A DNA stretch of 46,795 nt. Origin: an uncultured Acholeplasmataceae bacterium (lineage in GTDB: Bacteria; Bacillota_I; Bacilli_A; Acholeplasmatales; Acholeplasmataceae). A model generated the notes under the pieces. That model was not told the origin of the DNA. It saw only the letters and a list, made by a program, of their open reading frames with translations, and did not search any database. The stretch is taken from assembly GCA_927441705.1 (NCBI GenBank), contig CAKMKH010000009.1, positions 1-46,795 of the forward strand, read 5' to 3'. Each line of letters begins with the position of its first letter. Position 1 is the first letter of the stretch. Below are positions 4,305 through 11,712 of the stretch, piece by piece. Both the position numbers and the translations under genes were made by a program.

Positions 4305-4643
4305 ATGACAATTTATGATCGAATAACTCAAGAATTAAAACGTCAAAATAAAACAAGAAAAGATTTAAGTCATGGAACAAATATTTCATATAATACTTTA
4401 ACAAGTCTATTTCAACGACAAAGCATGAATATGAAAATGGATACTGCTAAACTAATTGCAAATTATCTTAATGTCACTATGGATTGGTTACTTCTTGGTG
4501 ATGAAGGTATACAACAAACTTCTGATTCAATGGAATCTGCTCTTATAAAAATCTTTAAGAAACTCGCGTTAAAAGGGAAGACAAAACTTATGGTTTATGC
4601 ATACGATTTAGAACAAGCAGAATTAGCTGAAAAAAATGAATAG
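4305..4643 (+). CDS. Xre/Cro-CI family helix-turn-helix repressor
   Basis: The 112-residue protein has a Cro/CI-type HTH over residues 1-65 (RKDLSHGTNISYNTLTSLFQ as recognition part, then NYLNVTMDWLLLGD, a common ending of this domain). The remaining 45 residues are helical, probably for dimerisation; there is no peptidase domain for RecA-stimulated cleavage. AAAGGATG precedes the ATG. Its last codons overlap the serine recombinase start by 8 nt, so the two are translationally coupled. It is divergent from the replication operon, which it presumably represses together with itself. Confidence 0.85.
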   Translation: MTIYDRITQELKRQNKTRKDLSHGTNISYNTLTSLFQRQSMNMKMDTAKLIANYLNVTMDWLLLGDEGIQQTSDSMESALIKIFKKLALKGKTKLMVYAYDLEQAELAEKNE

Positions 4644-6096
4644 AGCAGTCGTATACGCTCGATATTCATCCTCATCCCAAAATGAGCAGTCTATAGACAC
4701 TCAAATAGATTTATGTACTGAATATGCTAAAAAAAACGATCTGGTAGTCGTTAACAGTTATATAGATAGAGGAATGACAGGAACTAATACTAAAAGACCT
4801 GGATTCCAAAAGATGATTGCAGATAGCTTTAACGATGAGTTTGAGTATGTGATTGTATATAAATTAGATAGATTTGCTCGTGATGAATATGATGATATGT
4901 ATTATGAACGAGTTTTACTAGATAATGGTGTAAAAAGACTTTCAGCCACTGAACCTATACCAGAAGACCACTTCTCAGCATCCTTGGTAAAAGCAATAAC
5001 ACGTATATCTAATGAACAGTATTCTCGATTGCTCTCACAGCGTGTGACTCATGGATTAAATAAAAATGTAGAGCTAGGTATGATGGTCGGTGGTTCAGTT
5101 ACTTTTGGATACGATATGATAAACAAAAAATATCAAATCAATGAAACACGTGCTACATATATACGCATGATGTTTGACATGTATGTGAATGGTTCTACTA
5201 TTAAAGAGATATGCACCGAGCTTACATCCAAAGGGATATACAATATAAACAATAAGCCATTTCAATTTCAGCACATTTCAAAGATACTCCATAACAAAAG
5301 ATACATCGGCATCTTCAAATATAAAGGTGTAGAGTATCCTGATTTCATTCCTAAGATTATTGATGAGCAAACTTTTAAGACTGTTCAAGGTAAGCTAGGT
5401 AAGAATGCTACTAAGAAAAGCAGAGTCAGATATAACGTGAAGTATAATTTAACAGGTAAACTGTTCTGTGGCTATTGCGGTCATCCTATGACAGGTTTAT
5501 CTGGAACAGGAAGACATGGTGGTAAGCATTACTATTACAAGTGTTATAACTCTTCGTGTGATAAAAAGAACGAAATAAAAGACTACCTTGAAAACTTGGT
5601 AGTCAAATATGCTGTAGAACAAATTGTTAAAAGTGATAAATTAGATATGTGGATTCATAGCTCTATTGAGGTTTATAATAATCAGTTTCAAAAGAATGAT
5701 GTGATCATCAAGAATATTCAGAATCAAATAGCCAAGACCAATAATGAGATGGACAACATCATGAATGCAATCAAAGCTGGATTCTATTCAAATAGGACTA
5801 AAATCGAGTTCGATACCCTTGAGGAGCGTTTGAATGGATTAGAGCTAGAACTTATCAAGATGAGAGCTGAAAAGCCTGAAACGCTTGATTACGATATGCT
5901 CAAATTTTGGTTTAATAAATTTCTTACAAAAGACCCTGATGAGGATGACAAAGCTGATATCATAGGTGTTCTTGTTAACAAAGTCATTAAGTATGATGAC
6001 CGCCTTGTTATAGCATTTAATATATCAGATGATAATACATATAAGTATGAGACAGGGGTTTGTATAGATTCGCCTGATGCCCACCAACACAAATAA
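4636..6096 (+). CDS. Large serine recombinase (site-specific integrase)
   Basis: This 486-residue protein has the large serine integrase layout. The resolvase-type catalytic domain spans residues 1-145, with YARYS (nucleophile most likely Ser11), a conserved Q after it and KLDRFAR. The recombinase DNA-binding domain spans about 150-260. A zinc ribbon has Cys278, Cys281, Cys303 and Cys308, followed by a coiled coil at about 340-405. Such enzymes integrate and excise phages and integrative elements between attB and attP. It overlaps the repressor gene by 8 nt and ends in a terminator at 6095. All key residues are present and there is no frameshift, so it should be active. Attachment sites were not identified. 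Confidence 0.92.
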   Translation: MNRAVVYARYSSSSQNEQSIDTQIDLCTEYAKKNDLVVVNSYIDRGMTGTNTKRPGFQKMIADSFNDEFEYVIVYKLDRFARDEYDDMYYERVLLDNGVKRLSATEPIPEDHFSASLVKAITRISNEQYSRLLSQRVTHGLNKNVELGMMVGGSVTFGYDMINKKYQINETRATYIRMMFDMYVNGSTIKEICTELTSKGIYNINNKPFQFQHISKILHNKRYIGIFKYKGVEYPDFIPKIIDEQTFKTVQGKLGKNATKKSRVRYNVKYNLTGKLFCGYCGHPMTGLSGTGRHGGKHYYYKCYNSSCDKKNEIKDYLENLVVKYAVEQIVKSDKLDMWIHSSIEVYNNQFQKNDVIIKNIQNQIAKTNNEMDNIMNAIKAGFYSNRTKIEFDTLEERLNGLELELIKMRAEKPETLDYDMLKFWFNKFLTKDPDEDDKADIIGVLVNKVIKYDDRLVIAFNISDDNTYKYETGVCIDSPDAHQHK

Positions 6097-6711: not shown

Positions 6712-7191
6712 ATGAAATATAATAAAAAAACATATTTTATAATTTACCCTTCCATAGTTTCAATCTCATTTATTGTTGTTTTGTTATTTTTTCTTATCTT
6801 CACATTCATTACTGAAGATATGTTGATAAATTTATATGAGAATCTTTCAGAGAGATGGCTTTTATCAGTTTTATTTAGATTTTCATTTTATGGACTACCA
6901 ATAATTTTAATTTATATTTATTCTTCCTTATCTATACAATGTAATGAAAACTGGTCACTAATTAGTTTGGCCTATTCTACCAGATATGTCTTTGGTTTGA
7001 TTTCTTTATTCTTGTTTACTTGGAATTTTTTATCATTTGACGTACTATTCCCTGATTTTTCTATTTTTAGCTGGGGTGATACAATCTCAGGTTTTGGTGG
7101 GTACATTTTATCAGAATTTTTTATCCTAAATAATAAAAAGAAACATCCATTAGAAGATGAAACTAACAATATAAATGAGGTGATTATTTGA
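6712..7191 (+). CDS. Hypothetical four-helix membrane protein
   Basis: The 159-residue protein has four hydrophobic stretches, at about residues 8-30, 48-68, 84-104 and 115-135, and a charged tail. No family is recognised. It starts one base after the preceding stop and its own stop overlaps the next start by 4 nt (TTGA). This arrangement implies coordinated expression. It may be a membrane partner of the soluble first gene; the function is unknown. Confidence 0.6.
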   Translation: MKYNKKTYFIIYPSIVSISFIVVLLFFLIFTFITEDMLINLYENLSERWLLSVLFRFSFYGLPIILIYIYSSLSIQCNENWSLISLAYSTRYVFGLISLFLFTWNFLSFDVLFPDFSIFSWGDTISGFGGYILSEFFILNNKKKHPLEDETNNINEVII

Positions 7192-7478
7192 AAAAAATTC
7201 TTTTTGATTTATATTCGATTGACGAAAATGCCGAATTAATAAATGTGAAAACCAATTATAAAATGAACCCTAGTTATAATGAGATTAATTCTAGATATAA
7301 AGTGAATTTATCTGTCAATGGAAAAAAAACATCCTTTTATCTACATAAATTAATAGCTCAAAGTTTTATAGAAATTTATAATGAAGAGACTGATGAAATT
7401 CACTTTATAGATGGCAATCCTAAAAACTGTGTATTGAAGAATATTAGCATCTATAGAATGTGTAAAATTTTTCCATAA
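7188..7478 (+). CDS. HNH/NUMOD-like small protein, probably truncated
   Basis: The 96-residue product starts at TTG (7188), supported by GAGGTG upstream and by the 4-nt overlap with the previous gene. Its second half matches the pattern of HNH endonucleases with a NUMOD4-like lead-in (HKLIAQSFI, then FIDGNPKNCVLKNIS). The usual first His of the DHIDGN motif is replaced, giving FIDGN, and the protein stops before the EWVT-like end of the family. It therefore looks truncated or catalytically dead, or is a small DNA-binding derivative. Confidence 0.5.
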   Translation: MKKILFDLYSIDENAELINVKTNYKMNPSYNEINSRYKVNLSVNGKKTSFYLHKLIAQSFIEIYNEETDEIHFIDGNPKNCVLKNISIYRMCKIFP

Positions 7479-7810: not shown

Positions 7811-7844
7811 TTTGTGTTTGTATAAATTGAAATTTATCTTTATC

Positions 7845-7876
7845 AAAAAACTTCTAAATAATTTAGAAGTTTTTTT
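7845..7876. terminator. Bidirectional terminator between convergent units
   Basis: The stem AACTTCTAAA / TTTAGAAGTT has A- and T-runs on both sides, so it can work on both strands. It separates the plus-strand 6354-7810 unit from the minus-strand nuclease gene ending at 7881. Confidence 0.75.
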
Positions 7877-7880
7877 GTTA

Positions 7881-9407
7881 TTAATAATTAATAATAGAAG
7901 TTAAAAATCTACCCGACTGTTTGAAATATCCTAGTGGAAATGCTTCTTTTCCTCTTGCTTTATTCCATTTAATAGCCATTTCTTTAAGTTGTTGGGCAGT
8001 TATGAGGGTTATAATAGTATCAGATGTCAACTGGTATTGAGTTTGTTCTTGAATTGATGAATCAGTAAATGATGGACCGATAACCATAAACACTGCTACA
8101 GATTTTTCGCTAGTTTTGATATATCTATCGAACTGAATCATATGATCCTTTAGATTAACATCAGTTTCTTTTGATTTGTTATCCCACATGATTAATTTAT
8201 CATTGAAAGCTAAAACACCATCAGGATGCTCATTTCCTTTGATTTGTTGCACTGGTTGAACATTAAGCAATGTTTCAAAAATATAATGTGTAGCTTTTTC
8301 AAACATACGTTCACAATCTAAATCTTTTTGAATTAAGCCTTTAGATCTTAACTCCTCTAGTTTTCTTCCAGCTAACAACTCATAATATTCAAAATATAAA
8401 GCTCTTGGATCTTCATTGTCAATTTCGATTTCTTGAAATTCATCATAATATTGAATAATTTGGGCAATTAATTGATCTTTAGTCTTATTAGTTGTTAATC
8501 CTAAATCTTTGCTCCAATCAATTAAATCTCCTGTATTAAGTCCATCTCTTGAAGAATAGCCACCTAATACATTTGATGGCTTAATATTTTCTATAATAAA
8601 AACTTTTAAATCTTTAACTTGCATTTTGTTAGGATGGTTCAATCCACTCTTTTCAATGATTGCTTCAAGATACGCTTTTGATTTTAATCTCTTATCTTCA
8701 AGCATTTTGATATATCCAGATTTTTTCATTTCAATACCAAAAATAGATTTTAATGTTAAAACTATTTCAGAGGGAATTATGTCACAATCAATTCCATCAT
8801 CATTTCTCACTTGAAATAGTAGTCCCACTCTCTGCAACTCTTTTTTTACATCATTGATTTGATCATTAGAATGAAGCACATTTTTCTTTTGAGGATACAT
8901 GCCTAATTGAGCTTGAATAATTCTATACTCTTCTTCAGTAATACCTAATTTATGTTGTATTTTAAACAAAAGTTTCTTTTCATCTCTAGAAATCTGATCA
9001 TCATTTTCCCATGCTGCTTCTAGAACAAATCTCATCATTTCAAGTTCTTCTTTGTTGTGTTGATTTTTTGTAATAGTAAACTCTGCAGCTCTATTGCTGA
9101 TCGATTGCTGATACTTGTTAATTTCTTCATTTAATGATTTACATTCTATCATGTAATCATCGTGATTCAATAATACCTCTTTGATAATGACAGGTGCTAT
9201 TACTCTATAATCTCTATTGTCATTAAATATCATCTGATCATAAGCTTTTATAACATTATCTATATCAAAGTATTGTTTCTTTGTTTTGATTAATGCTCCA
9301 ACTAATTCTTCTTTATTTAAAGATCTATAGTCAAACACATACGCATTTGCTACTCTTTTGATGTCATTCAAAGTTGATATGTTTTGAACTACTACTTCGA
9401 AATCCAT
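7881..9407 (-). CDS. Lone nuclease-like protein: TerB-like and SAP-like regions plus FokI-like PD-(D/E)xK domain
   Basis: This 508-residue soluble protein starts at 9407 (MDFEVV), because GGAGGG lies just upstream; an in-frame ATG at 9422 lies before that SD. Residues about 122-172 (ENDDQISRDEKKLLFKIQHK) look TerB-like. Residues about 245-325 contain two SAP-like helical segments (VKDLKVFIIENIK; TKDQLIAQIIQYYDE). The C-terminal third carries a PD-(D/E)xK nuclease pattern: Glu370/Glu378 in a helix, Pro395-Asp396-Gly, and Asp409-Asn-Lys411. The order PDGVLAF...IMWDNKSKE...QFDRYI resembles the FokI cleavage domain. It probably binds and cuts DNA. No methyltransferase is adjacent, so it is not an ordinary restriction pair. 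A defence or element-control role is inference. Confidence 0.6.
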   Translation of the reverse strand: MDFEVVVQNISTLNDIKRVANAYVFDYRSLNKEELVGALIKTKKQYFDIDNVIKAYDQMIFNDNRDYRVIAPVIIKEVLLNHDDYMIECKSLNEEINKYQQSISNRAAEFTITKNQHNKEELEMMRFVLEAAWENDDQISRDEKKLLFKIQHKLGITEEEYRIIQAQLGMYPQKKNVLHSNDQINDVKKELQRVGLLFQVRNDDGIDCDIIPSEIVLTLKSIFGIEMKKSGYIKMLEDKRLKSKAYLEAIIEKSGLNHPNKMQVKDLKVFIIENIKPSNVLGGYSSRDGLNTGDLIDWSKDLGLTTNKTKDQLIAQIIQYYDEFQEIEIDNEDPRALYFEYYELLAGRKLEELRSKGLIQKDLDCERMFEKATHYIFETLLNVQPVQQIKGNEHPDGVLAFNDKLIMWDNKSKETDVNLKDHMIQFDRYIKTSEKSVAVFMVIGPSFTDSSIQEQTQYQLTSDTIITLITAQQLKEMAIKWNKARGKEAFPLGYFKQSGRFLTSIINY

Positions 9408-9434: not shown

Positions 9435-9462
9435 ATTATACAGCAAAGATTTACAAATTCAA
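9435..9462 (-). promoter_or_regulatory. Promoter of the lone nuclease gene
   Basis: On the minus strand TTGAAT (9462-9457), 16 nt and TATAAT (9440-9435) lie just upstream of the SD and start at 9407. The rest of the gap, 9463-9886, is AT-rich and shows no gene, repeat or RNA that I can support. Confidence 0.5.
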
Positions 9463-9886
9463 AATTGCATATTTATTATTATTCATATAATACAAATATA
9501 TAACTTCTATGCTGTTAAGCAAGAGGATTTTTTACGTGTTTCTGACTGAAATGGAATAAAAAATAGTATTGTTTTTCAACATGTTTTGGATAGTATGTAA
9601 GATAGTCTTTTTAATAATTTATTAATCGATTCCAAAATTCAACATTATCATTTTTATCTGAATGTCCTAGCAGTTTTTAGAGTTTCTGCCACTAGACAAT
9701 ACATTTTACCATTTAATTTCAAATTTTTTTTTGCTCTATGTATGTGTTTTGCTTCACTTTTAAAGACCGCGAAATACTTTATACATAAAATCATAATCAT
9801 AAAAATAATCAGAATATATATATTTAATGTTATGATAAAAGCATACAGGTGATACGTTTTTCATATGTACTGTTTGGGAGGATATA

Positions 9887-10564
9887 ATGAAAAAAAGTGA
9901 TTTTTTATGGATATTCATTCTTGTTTGTCTTTCTTTGATTGTAATTATTCCACAATCAAGACTTACTTTTGAACAAGCCACTGCTTCTCATCCATATTTA
10001 ATAGGCTTTATAAAAGTCGCAATTCTAGCAAGTCTTGGTGAGAGACTAGTATATAGAATAAAAACAGGTTTTTATTTTGGAGATCACGGCATATTGCTTA
10101 AACTCATAGTTTGGGGATTCTTAGGTGTGGTATTCGTCATCATTTTTAAATTATTTTCAAGTGGTGTAGTTGCTGCTCAAGAGTCAAACTATCTGCCAAG
10201 TATTGAAAATGCATCATTTTTGTCTTCTCTACTTACAGCATTTATGATCAGTTTTTTTATGAATATCTTTTTTGCTCCAACATTTATGCTATTTCACCGA
10301 TTTACAGATCGCTATATTGAACTTGGAGATGGTCGATTAGATCAAATTATTCGAATTCCATTCAAAGAAGTTACAGAAAAAGTTGATTTTCCACAATTTA
10401 TAAATTTTGTTGTTTTGAAAACTATACCATTCTTTTGGATACCTGCCCATACAATTACGTTTTTATTACCAGAAAATTATCGAGTGTTAATGGCTGCTTA
10501 TCTTTCAGTGGTTTTGGGTTTCTTATTATCAATAACAAAAAATAAGGTTAAAAAAAATAATTAG
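9887..10564 (+). CDS. Membrane protein, possibly Mpv17/PMP22-like
   Basis: The 225-residue protein has about five membrane segments (residues 7-27, 40-55, 68-90, 110-135, 170-210). The C-terminal part (FVVLKTIPFFWIPAHTITFL, then ENYRVLMAAYLSVVLGFLLS) resembles the signature of Mpv17/PMP22 proteins, a family known in some bacteria. The SD TGGGAGG precedes the ATG. It is a single gene with no clear terminator before rsmH. The family call is tentative and no substrate can be named. Confidence 0.5.
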   Translation: MKKSDFLWIFILVCLSLIVIIPQSRLTFEQATASHPYLIGFIKVAILASLGERLVYRIKTGFYFGDHGILLKLIVWGFLGVVFVIIFKLFSSGVVAAQESNYLPSIENASFLSSLLTAFMISFFMNIFFAPTFMLFHRFTDRYIELGDGRLDQIIRIPFKEVTEKVDFPQFINFVVLKTIPFFWIPAHTITFLLPENYRVLMAAYLSVVLGFLLSITKNKVKKNN

Positions 10565-10662
10565 AAAAATTTCTTATTATATTTTAATCTAGTAGATTCG
10601 CATTTAATATCATATATTTAATATATATTTTTTAAAACTCTTGGAAAGGTGATTAAACTACT

Positions 10663-11712
10663 ATGGACAATACAGAAAAAAAACATCAAAGACGTATTCG
10701 CTATAAAGGGACTCATCCCAAATCATTTGATGCTAGATATAAAGAACACCAACCAGACAAATATGGTGAAACCATAAAAAAAGTGATTCAAAAAGGAAAT
10801 ACACCTGCTGGTATGCACCGACCTATTTGTGTCAATGAAATTCTAGATTTTTTACAAATCAAACCTAGCCAAATCGGATTAGATGCTACACTAGGTTATG
10901 GTGGACATACAGTTGAGATTCTAAATAAAATAGACTCAAAAGGCCATCTTTACGCTATAGATAGAGATCCTATCGAATCTAAACGTACAAAACAAAGATT
11001 ATTAGACCTTGGCTATAGCGAAAATGTCTTATCAATAAAAAACATAAATTTCTCTGATGTCGATATACTAGCTTTAGATTCAGGATTATTTGATTTTGTT
11101 TTAGCTGATTTAGGTGTTTCTTCGATGCAAATCGATAATCCAGAAAGAGGCTTCTCTTTTAAAAATGAAGGTCCTCTAGATTTAAGGATGAATCCTAATA
11201 TAGGAATACCCGCATCTGATCGCTTAAGAGAACTTTCAAAAAACGAGATTATAGGTATGCTTATAGAGAATTCAGATGAACCATATGCTGAAAAAATAGC
11301 TGAAGCTATCATTTTAGAATATACACAAGGGAACATGATCAATTCTACAACTGATTTATATGAGACCATCCAAAAAGCATTATCTTTTTTACCTAAGGAT
11401 ATAAAAGATGATGTAATCAAGAAGTCTTCCCAAAGAACTTTTCAAGCACTTAGAATAGATGTAAATCATGAATTTGAAGCCTTATACGAATTCTTAGAAA
11501 AACTTCCTCAAGTCCTTAACTCTGGTGGGAGAGTTGCAATATTATCTTTTCATTCTGGTGAAGATAGATTAGTCAAGAAATCTTTTCAATTCTATTTTAG
11601 ACAAGGCATCTATAAAGAAATATCTGATGGGCCTATTAGACCATCTATGGAAGAACAAAGTTCTAATAGTCGTTCTAGATCGGCTAAACTCAGATGGGCA
11701 ATTAAAGCTTAA
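10663..11712 (+). CDS. rsmH: RsmH-type 16S rRNA (cytosine-N4)-methyltransferase, extended form
   Basis: RsmH methylates N4 of C1402 in 16S rRNA using S-adenosylmethionine. The body shows the family order: HRPICVNEIL, GLDATLGYGGHT (SAM loop), AIDRDP, LADLGVSSMQIDNPERGFSF, PLDLRMN, and the end motif AILSFHSGEDRLVK. At 349 residues it is about 35 longer than usual. The extra length is a basic N-terminal segment (RRIRYKGTHPKSF) seen in a second, extended RsmH subfamily of some Firmicutes. It stands alone, not beside mraZ/ftsL/ftsI, so it may be a paralogue of a dcw-cluster copy elsewhere. The substrate of the extended form could differ. Confidence 0.85.
   Translation: MDNTEKKHQRRIRYKGTHPKSFDARYKEHQPDKYGETIKKVIQKGNTPAGMHRPICVNEILDFLQIKPSQIGLDATLGYGGHTVEILNKIDSKGHLYAIDRDPIESKRTKQRLLDLGYSENVLSIKNINFSDVDILALDSGLFDFVLADLGVSSMQIDNPERGFSFKNEGPLDLRMNPNIGIPASDRLRELSKNEIIGMLIENSDEPYAEKIAEAIILEYTQGNMINSTTDLYETIQKALSFLPKDIKDDVIKKSSQRTFQALRIDVNHEFEALYEFLEKLPQVLNSGGRVAILSFHSGEDRLVKKSFQFYFRQGIYKEISDGPIRPSMEEQSSNSRSRSAKLRWAIKA

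What the first reader, a model, noticed from the sequence alone, without database searches (positions are those of the whole stretch)
7881..9407. Lone TerB-like/SAP-like protein with a FokI-like nuclease end and no methyltransferase
The C-terminal third shows a helix Glu, PDG, then DNK in the spacing of PD-(D/E)xK nucleases. The order of later hydrophobic strands resembles the FokI cleavage domain. Upstream are a TerB-like segment and two SAP-like DNA-binding segments. No methyltransferase or second restriction subunit is nearby, so how the host is spared is unclear. It has its own promoter and terminator and lies in accessory DNA next to a recombinase module. This could be a stand-alone defence or abortive-infection nuclease. 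The motifs are seen; the fold and role are inferred.
Basis: partly seen in the sequence, partly recalled or inferred. Interest (0 to 1): 0.62.

Follow-up and report, generated by a model that had tools for sequence, protein, structure and literature searches.

The report
Lone FokI-like nuclease, probable phage defence
This gene makes a single-protein DNA-cutting enzyme whose blade resembles that of the restriction enzyme FokI but which has no partner methylase in any relative examined; it belongs to an unnamed, patchily spread bacterial and archaeal family that sometimes sits in anti-virus gene islands.

Summary
The 508-aa gene is real, on the minus strand (9407-7881). It belongs to a family that Pfam, NCBIfam, PADLOC and PHROGs do not name: 0.5% of sampled genomes in its own class, about 2% of one clostridial order, about 6% of haloarchaeal genomes; no hit in phages or viral contigs. 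The C-terminal third is a FokI-type PD-(D/E)xK nuclease: FokI_cleav_dom matches 10 of 18 relatives (sub-threshold), the predicted structure's top PDB hits are FokI and Nt.BspD6I, and E370, D396, D409, K411 are invariant in all 36 distinct rows, archaea included; one divergent copy lost all four together. One SAP segment is supported; a winged-helix-like reader at about 141-215 is inferred; TerB is not confirmed. No cognate methyltransferase recurs in any of about 35 loci. Defence context is strong in a minority: beside PARIS-Thoeris-Gabija and near a type II R-M in Izimaplasma ZiA1, and between helicase/methylase defence genes in a haloarchaeon. Most copies lie among housekeeping genes, and a haloarchaeal control showed no enrichment. 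Best reading: a stand-alone restriction-like nuclease, probably antiviral, sparing the host by target state or autoinhibition rather than methylation. It is not a FokI-type R-M system.

The parts
7881..9407 (-). Gene for the 508-aa stand-alone FokI-like nuclease
   Evidence: ORF with stop 7883-7881 and Shine-Dalgarno; 40 or so homologues
7884..8327 (-). C-terminal FokI-type PD-(D/E)xK nuclease domain (residues about 361-508)
   Evidence: Pfam FokI_cleav_dom in 10/18 members, best E 1.2e-4; PDB fold hits FokI/Nt.BspD6I; alpha-beta-beta core in model
8298..8300 (-). E370, helix glutamate of the active site
   Evidence: invariant in 36 distinct rows
8220..8222 (-). D396 of PDG
   Evidence: invariant; aligns with the PDG of a true FokI homologue
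8175..8183 (-). D409-N410-K411, the (D/E)xK motif
   Evidence: invariant, also in members found without a WDNK pattern
8433..8552 (-). SAP-like segment (residues about 286-325)
   Evidence: Pfam SAP / SAP_new25 in 7/18 members, one over the curated cut-off
8763..8897 (-). Most conserved N-terminal block (171-215), end of a winged-helix-like reader (helices 141-154, 158-167, 181-193; wing 198-210)
   Evidence: P172, H179, I184, Q192, P212 invariant bacteria to archaea; secondary structure; wHTH reading is inference
8898..9119 (-).
   Evidence: only marginal TerB-family matches; no support from relatives or fold
7840..7878 (-). Rho-independent terminator
   Evidence: 14-bp A+T-rich hairpin with T6 tail, z -5.1; missed by the consensus scan, which asks for 3 G-C pairs
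9435..9462 (-). Candidate sigma-70 promoter TTGAAT-16-TATAAT
   Evidence: 10/12 match, but matches in the region are at chance level
4305..6096 (+). Prophage repressor and large serine integrase, neighbouring accessory module
   Evidence: PHROGs 8 and 95
9775..11712 (+). Conserved chromosomal flank (membrane protein, RsmH-like gene); homology to same-genus genomes starts at 9775
   Evidence: blastn against the loci of G004 and G002, which lack the nuclease gene

Best explanation
A stand-alone restriction-like DNA endonuclease, most likely antiviral. The N-terminal helical, winged-helix-like and SAP parts bind DNA; the C-terminal FokI-type PD-(D/E)xK domain cuts it with Mg2+, by analogy with FokI after two nuclease domains meet. 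Because no relative carries a cognate methyltransferase, the host is probably spared by what is recognised (a modified, branched or otherwise virus-like DNA state) or by autoinhibition until DNA loading, rather than by protective methylation. Shown: FokI-type profile and fold match, active-site conservation, one SAP segment, lack of a linked methylase, patchy spread, defence-island placement in some hosts. Inferred: DNA as target, dimerisation, antiviral role, sparing mechanism. Estimates: active FokI-type nuclease 0.92; accessory defence role 0.6; target-state recognition rather than a fixed sequence protected in trans 0.4.
For: FokI_cleav_dom in 10/18 members and SAP in 7/18. AF2 model, pLDDT 88.4, helix(E370)-strand(D396)-strand(D409,K411) order. 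Foldseek PDB: the 11 best hits are all FokI or Nt.BspD6I, E down to 2.8e-6; the R.BspD6I small subunit fits with TM 0.55 (target-normalised), rmsd 3.9. The family profile finds a true FokI homologue (L108) at FE/PDG/DTK. Catalytic residues invariant in 36 distinct rows, including members found by whole-profile search without the WDNK pattern. Patchy occurrence. Broken copies: TAA in L006, TGA fragment in G698, split G729, fragment in Halalkalicoccus. Defence context: rlmH - family gene - PARIS - Thoeris - Gabija in ZiA1; type II MTase/REase 3 kb from the other ZiA1 copy; HKD-Snf2 helicase, UvrD-like helicase and IIG-like MTase around L021. No recurrent neighbour gene.
Against: Haloarchaeal neighbourhoods are mostly housekeeping and not enriched for PADLOC families over control regions. 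Clostridial copies sit in stable core contexts (mntP-trpB-like, mutS2-like, spoIVA-like neighbours, named by eye). PADLOC itself does not match the protein. No modified-base reader fold was recognised in the N-terminal part. The Pfam FokI scores are below the curated cut-off. No experiment exists.
Confidence: 0.6

Rival explanations
1. Sequence-specific type IIS-like restriction enzyme whose protective methyltransferase is encoded elsewhere in the genome (R-M with unlinked partners).
For: The nuclease domain is FokI-type; the host genome has a C5 MTase on another contig; a true FokI homologue with an adjacent D12-like methylase exists in a same-class genome.
Against: No methylase recurs near any of about 35 copies. 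FokI's own recognition part is not recovered when the N-terminal 335 residues are searched alone. The putative reader is conserved from Bacillota to haloarchaea, unlike typical diverging recognition domains.
Confidence: 0.15
2. Modification-dependent (type IV-like) restriction enzyme that cuts only phage DNA bearing modified bases or backbone (a special case of the best explanation).
For: Lone nuclease gene without methylase in all loci; invariant reader block 171-215.
Against: No SRA, EVE, YTH or sulphur-binding fold among Pfam or PDB matches.
Confidence: 0.25
3. Housekeeping DNA repair or recombination nuclease, not defence.
For: Stable core-gene contexts in Clostridia and haloarchaea; SAP segments occur in repair proteins (own knowledge).
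Against: Absent from 93-99.5% of genomes in the same groups, broken copies common, two copies in some genomes, placement in a PARIS-Thoeris-Gabija island.
Confidence: 0.2
4. Prophage moron or superinfection-exclusion gene carried by the neighbouring serine-integrase prophage.
For: Lies between the integrase module and the point where chromosomal homology begins, 9775.
Against: No relative in IMG/VR or the phage collection; the relatives' surroundings show no consistent prophage genes. The att site could not be mapped because the contig ends inside the prophage.
Confidence: 0.15

Closest known systems
FokI (type IIS restriction endonuclease)
   Same: C-terminal cleavage domain: profile, fold and E/PDG/DxK arrangement
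   Different: No FokI-type triple-winged-helix recognition part found (module described in PMC10853773), no adjacent methylase, SAP segment added
Nt.BspD6I / R.BspD6I heterodimer
   Same: Second best fold match; DNA-binding N-terminal part plus FokI-like catalytic domain (PMC8533099)
   Different: No small-subunit gene recurs beside the copies; different N-terminal part
Type IV modification-dependent enzymes (MspJI, McrA and McrBC types)
   Same: Lone nuclease without methylase (own knowledge)
   Different: No known modified-base reader domain detected
Defence systems PARIS, Thoeris, Gabija
   Same: Neighbours of one copy (L006) at an rlmH hotspot
   Different: Not homologous; the family gene is not a recurrent component of any of them

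Membership tests
FokI-type IIS restriction-modification system | FokI cleavage domain with D..DxK active site | tested here: met
   (Pfam scores below curated cut-off; fold and residues clear)
FokI-type IIS restriction-modification system | FokI-like multi-winged-helix recognition region | tested here: not met
   N-terminal 335 aa model (pLDDT 88.8) has no FokI or other confident PDB match, best E 0.19
FokI-type IIS restriction-modification system | Cognate DNA methyltransferase beside the nuclease | tested here: not met
   No recurrent neighbour; in contrast to L108, which has one adjacent
FokI-type IIS restriction-modification system | Cleavage at fixed distance from a specific site | not testable with these tools
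   needs biochemistry
Type IV modification-dependent restriction | Recognised modified-DNA reader domain | tested here: not met
   Pfam and PDB fold searches
Type IV modification-dependent restriction | Cuts modified, spares unmodified DNA | not testable with these tools
   needs biochemistry
TerB-domain protein | TerB / DUF533 domain | tested here: inconclusive
   E 0.018-0.32 in the window protein only; not in relatives or by fold
SAP-domain protein | SAP motif | tested here: met
   7/18 members, one above the curated cut-off, residues 286-325
Catalogued anti-phage systems (PADLOC) | Match to a PADLOC model | tested here: not met
   0 families at E<=10

The most novel reading that the evidence does not exclude
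An undescribed single-gene antiviral nuclease family shared by Bacillota/Mycoplasmatota and haloarchaea: a FokI-type blade driven by a conserved helical/winged-helix/SAP sensor that recognises a virus-specific DNA state instead of a sequence, so that no protective methylase is needed.
Probability: 0.35. Interest if true: 0.65.

Novelty: new variant of a known kind. Interest (0 to 1): 0.45.

Why it matters
FokI-type blades are widely used tools, and known natural ones depend on sequence readers plus protective methylases. A natural family that pairs the blade with a different reader and no methylase, and that crosses from Bacillota to haloarchaea, would be a new way of telling foreign from own DNA and a possible source of new targeting modules. 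It also names a family that current defence databases miss.

Tried and rejected
Plus-strand reading of the coordinates (stops throughout). A TerB identity (not supported beyond marginal hits; the attempt to fetch TerB relatives for a profile comparison found none in 61 genomes of the phylum). Viral relatives (none; BFVD fold search without significant hit). A conserved partner gene (none). General defence-gene enrichment in haloarchaeal neighbourhoods (not seen). Foreign base composition (GC 0.291 against 0.298 +/- 0.015 in the chromosomal part: no signal). L109 and L110, weak FokI hits, were not family members.

Full report
Observation. The given coordinates hold a 508-residue ORF on the minus strand, ATG at 9407 behind GGTGGAGGG, stop at 7883-7881. 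It ends in an A+T-rich hairpin with a T tail, a plausible terminator; the promoter-like box is no better than chance for this A+T-rich DNA. The window is one whole contig (C9) of a 105-contig genome. To the left lies part of a prophage with repressor and serine integrase. To the right, DNA homology to same-genus genomes starts at 9775, so the gene sits in accessory DNA between the integrase module and the conserved chromosome. Its base composition does not differ from the chromosome.

Family. Pfam, NCBIfam, PADLOC and PHROGs do not recognise the window protein. None of 149 close relatives has it. A scan of genome contigs gave 17 loci: ten from Izimaplasma/Izemoplasma and Clostridia and seven from haloarchaea. 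Profile searches, which do not depend on the WDNK scan pattern, gave 21 of 341 genomes in the haloarchaeal class, some of them fragments and at least four already known; 6 of 345 in a clostridial order, one of them the seed; and 2 of 395 in the own class. The tree separates bacterial and archaeal members cleanly. No phage or viral contig has a relative. Broken copies are common.

Nuclease. Ten of 18 members match Pfam FokI_cleav_dom (best E 1.2e-4, below the curated cut-off in the members listed) over about residues 357-434. The eleven best PDB matches are FokI and Nt.BspD6I. The family profile aligns with a true FokI homologue in a same-class genome (L108) at FE, PDG and DTK; that gene has a D12-like methylase (named by eye) next door, ours does not. 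E370, D396, D409 and K411 are among only 30 invariant columns in 36 distinct rows. One very divergent clostridial copy beside pilus-like genes (L077) keeps 17 of 30 invariant residues but lost all four catalytic ones (Fisher p 0.026), as expected if these four act together.

N-terminal part. A SAP segment at about 286-325 is supported in seven members. Residues 141-215 (helix, helix, helix, two-strand wing) look like a winged helix, with P172, H179, I184, Q192 and P212 invariant from Bacillota to haloarchaea. This is my inference: the N-terminal model alone (pLDDT 88.8) has no confident PDB match, only weak winged-helix ones. TerB is not confirmed.

Context. No neighbour recurs across loci. 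In ZiA1 one copy, with an internal stop, lies between rlmH and PARIS, Thoeris and Gabija genes, and the other lies 3 kb from a type II methylase/restriction pair. In the haloarchaeon QS_1_69_70 the gene lies between a UvrD-like helicase and an HKD-Snf2 helicase with a IIG-like methylase beyond. Most other copies lie among housekeeping genes, and in haloarchaea defence families were not enriched over control regions (MTase/MkoA-type signals against Mads/UvrD-type signals, each in one to three genes; small sample, only the top 25 of 64 model rows shown). Defence context is therefore real but not general.

Mechanism. The anatomy fits a stand-alone DNA endonuclease with its own DNA-binding part. 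FokI needs dimerisation for cleavage (Bitinaite et al. 1998, cited in PMC8533099); Nt.BspD6I does not (PMC8533099), so dimerisation here is open. Lack of any linked methylase and a reader conserved across domains of life favour recognition of a DNA state, or autoinhibition, over a fixed sequence protected by methylation. Antiviral use is the best reading of patchiness, decay and islands, at about 0.6.

Comparison and novelty. It shares FokI's blade but fails two defining features of a FokI-type R-M system (recognition modules, linked methylase); it works like a restriction nuclease without being a member of that system. It is a new variant of a known kind. The literature searches found no description of this combination, within an open-access library only.

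Noticed in passing
L006 2300-14471 (Candidatus Izimaplasma ZiA1): rlmH is followed by a defence island: family gene (broken), PARIS (AriA, AriB), Thoeris (two ThsB, ThsA), Gabija; rlmH looks like an island hotspot here, as for SCC elements in staphylococci (own knowledge).
   Followed up: partly
L077 4855-6417: A full-length family member beside type IV pilus-like genes has lost all four catalytic residues; possibly a repurposed, non-cutting homologue.
   Followed up: partly
window 10663-11712: A second RsmH-like methyltransferase with an N-terminal extension, 78-82% conserved in two same-genus genomes, in addition to a normal-length paralogue on contig C87 (36% identity); RsmH is usually single-copy.
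   Followed up: partly
window 7188-7478: 96-aa HNH/homing-endonuclease-like fragment (PADLOC HEase E 1.4e-10; PHROG 59) starting with TTG and overlapping the preceding ORF, between the integrase and the nuclease gene.
   Followed up: no
L007 9558-9941: GIY-YIG-like nuclease gene 55 bp upstream of and co-directional with the family gene (weak PADLOC PDC-S14 match), possibly an operon in Izemoplasma acidinucleici.
   Followed up: no
L010 12482-12934 and L013 11669-12034: DUF559-like (Vsr-type, named by eye) nuclease-fold gene near two clostridial copies.
   Followed up: no
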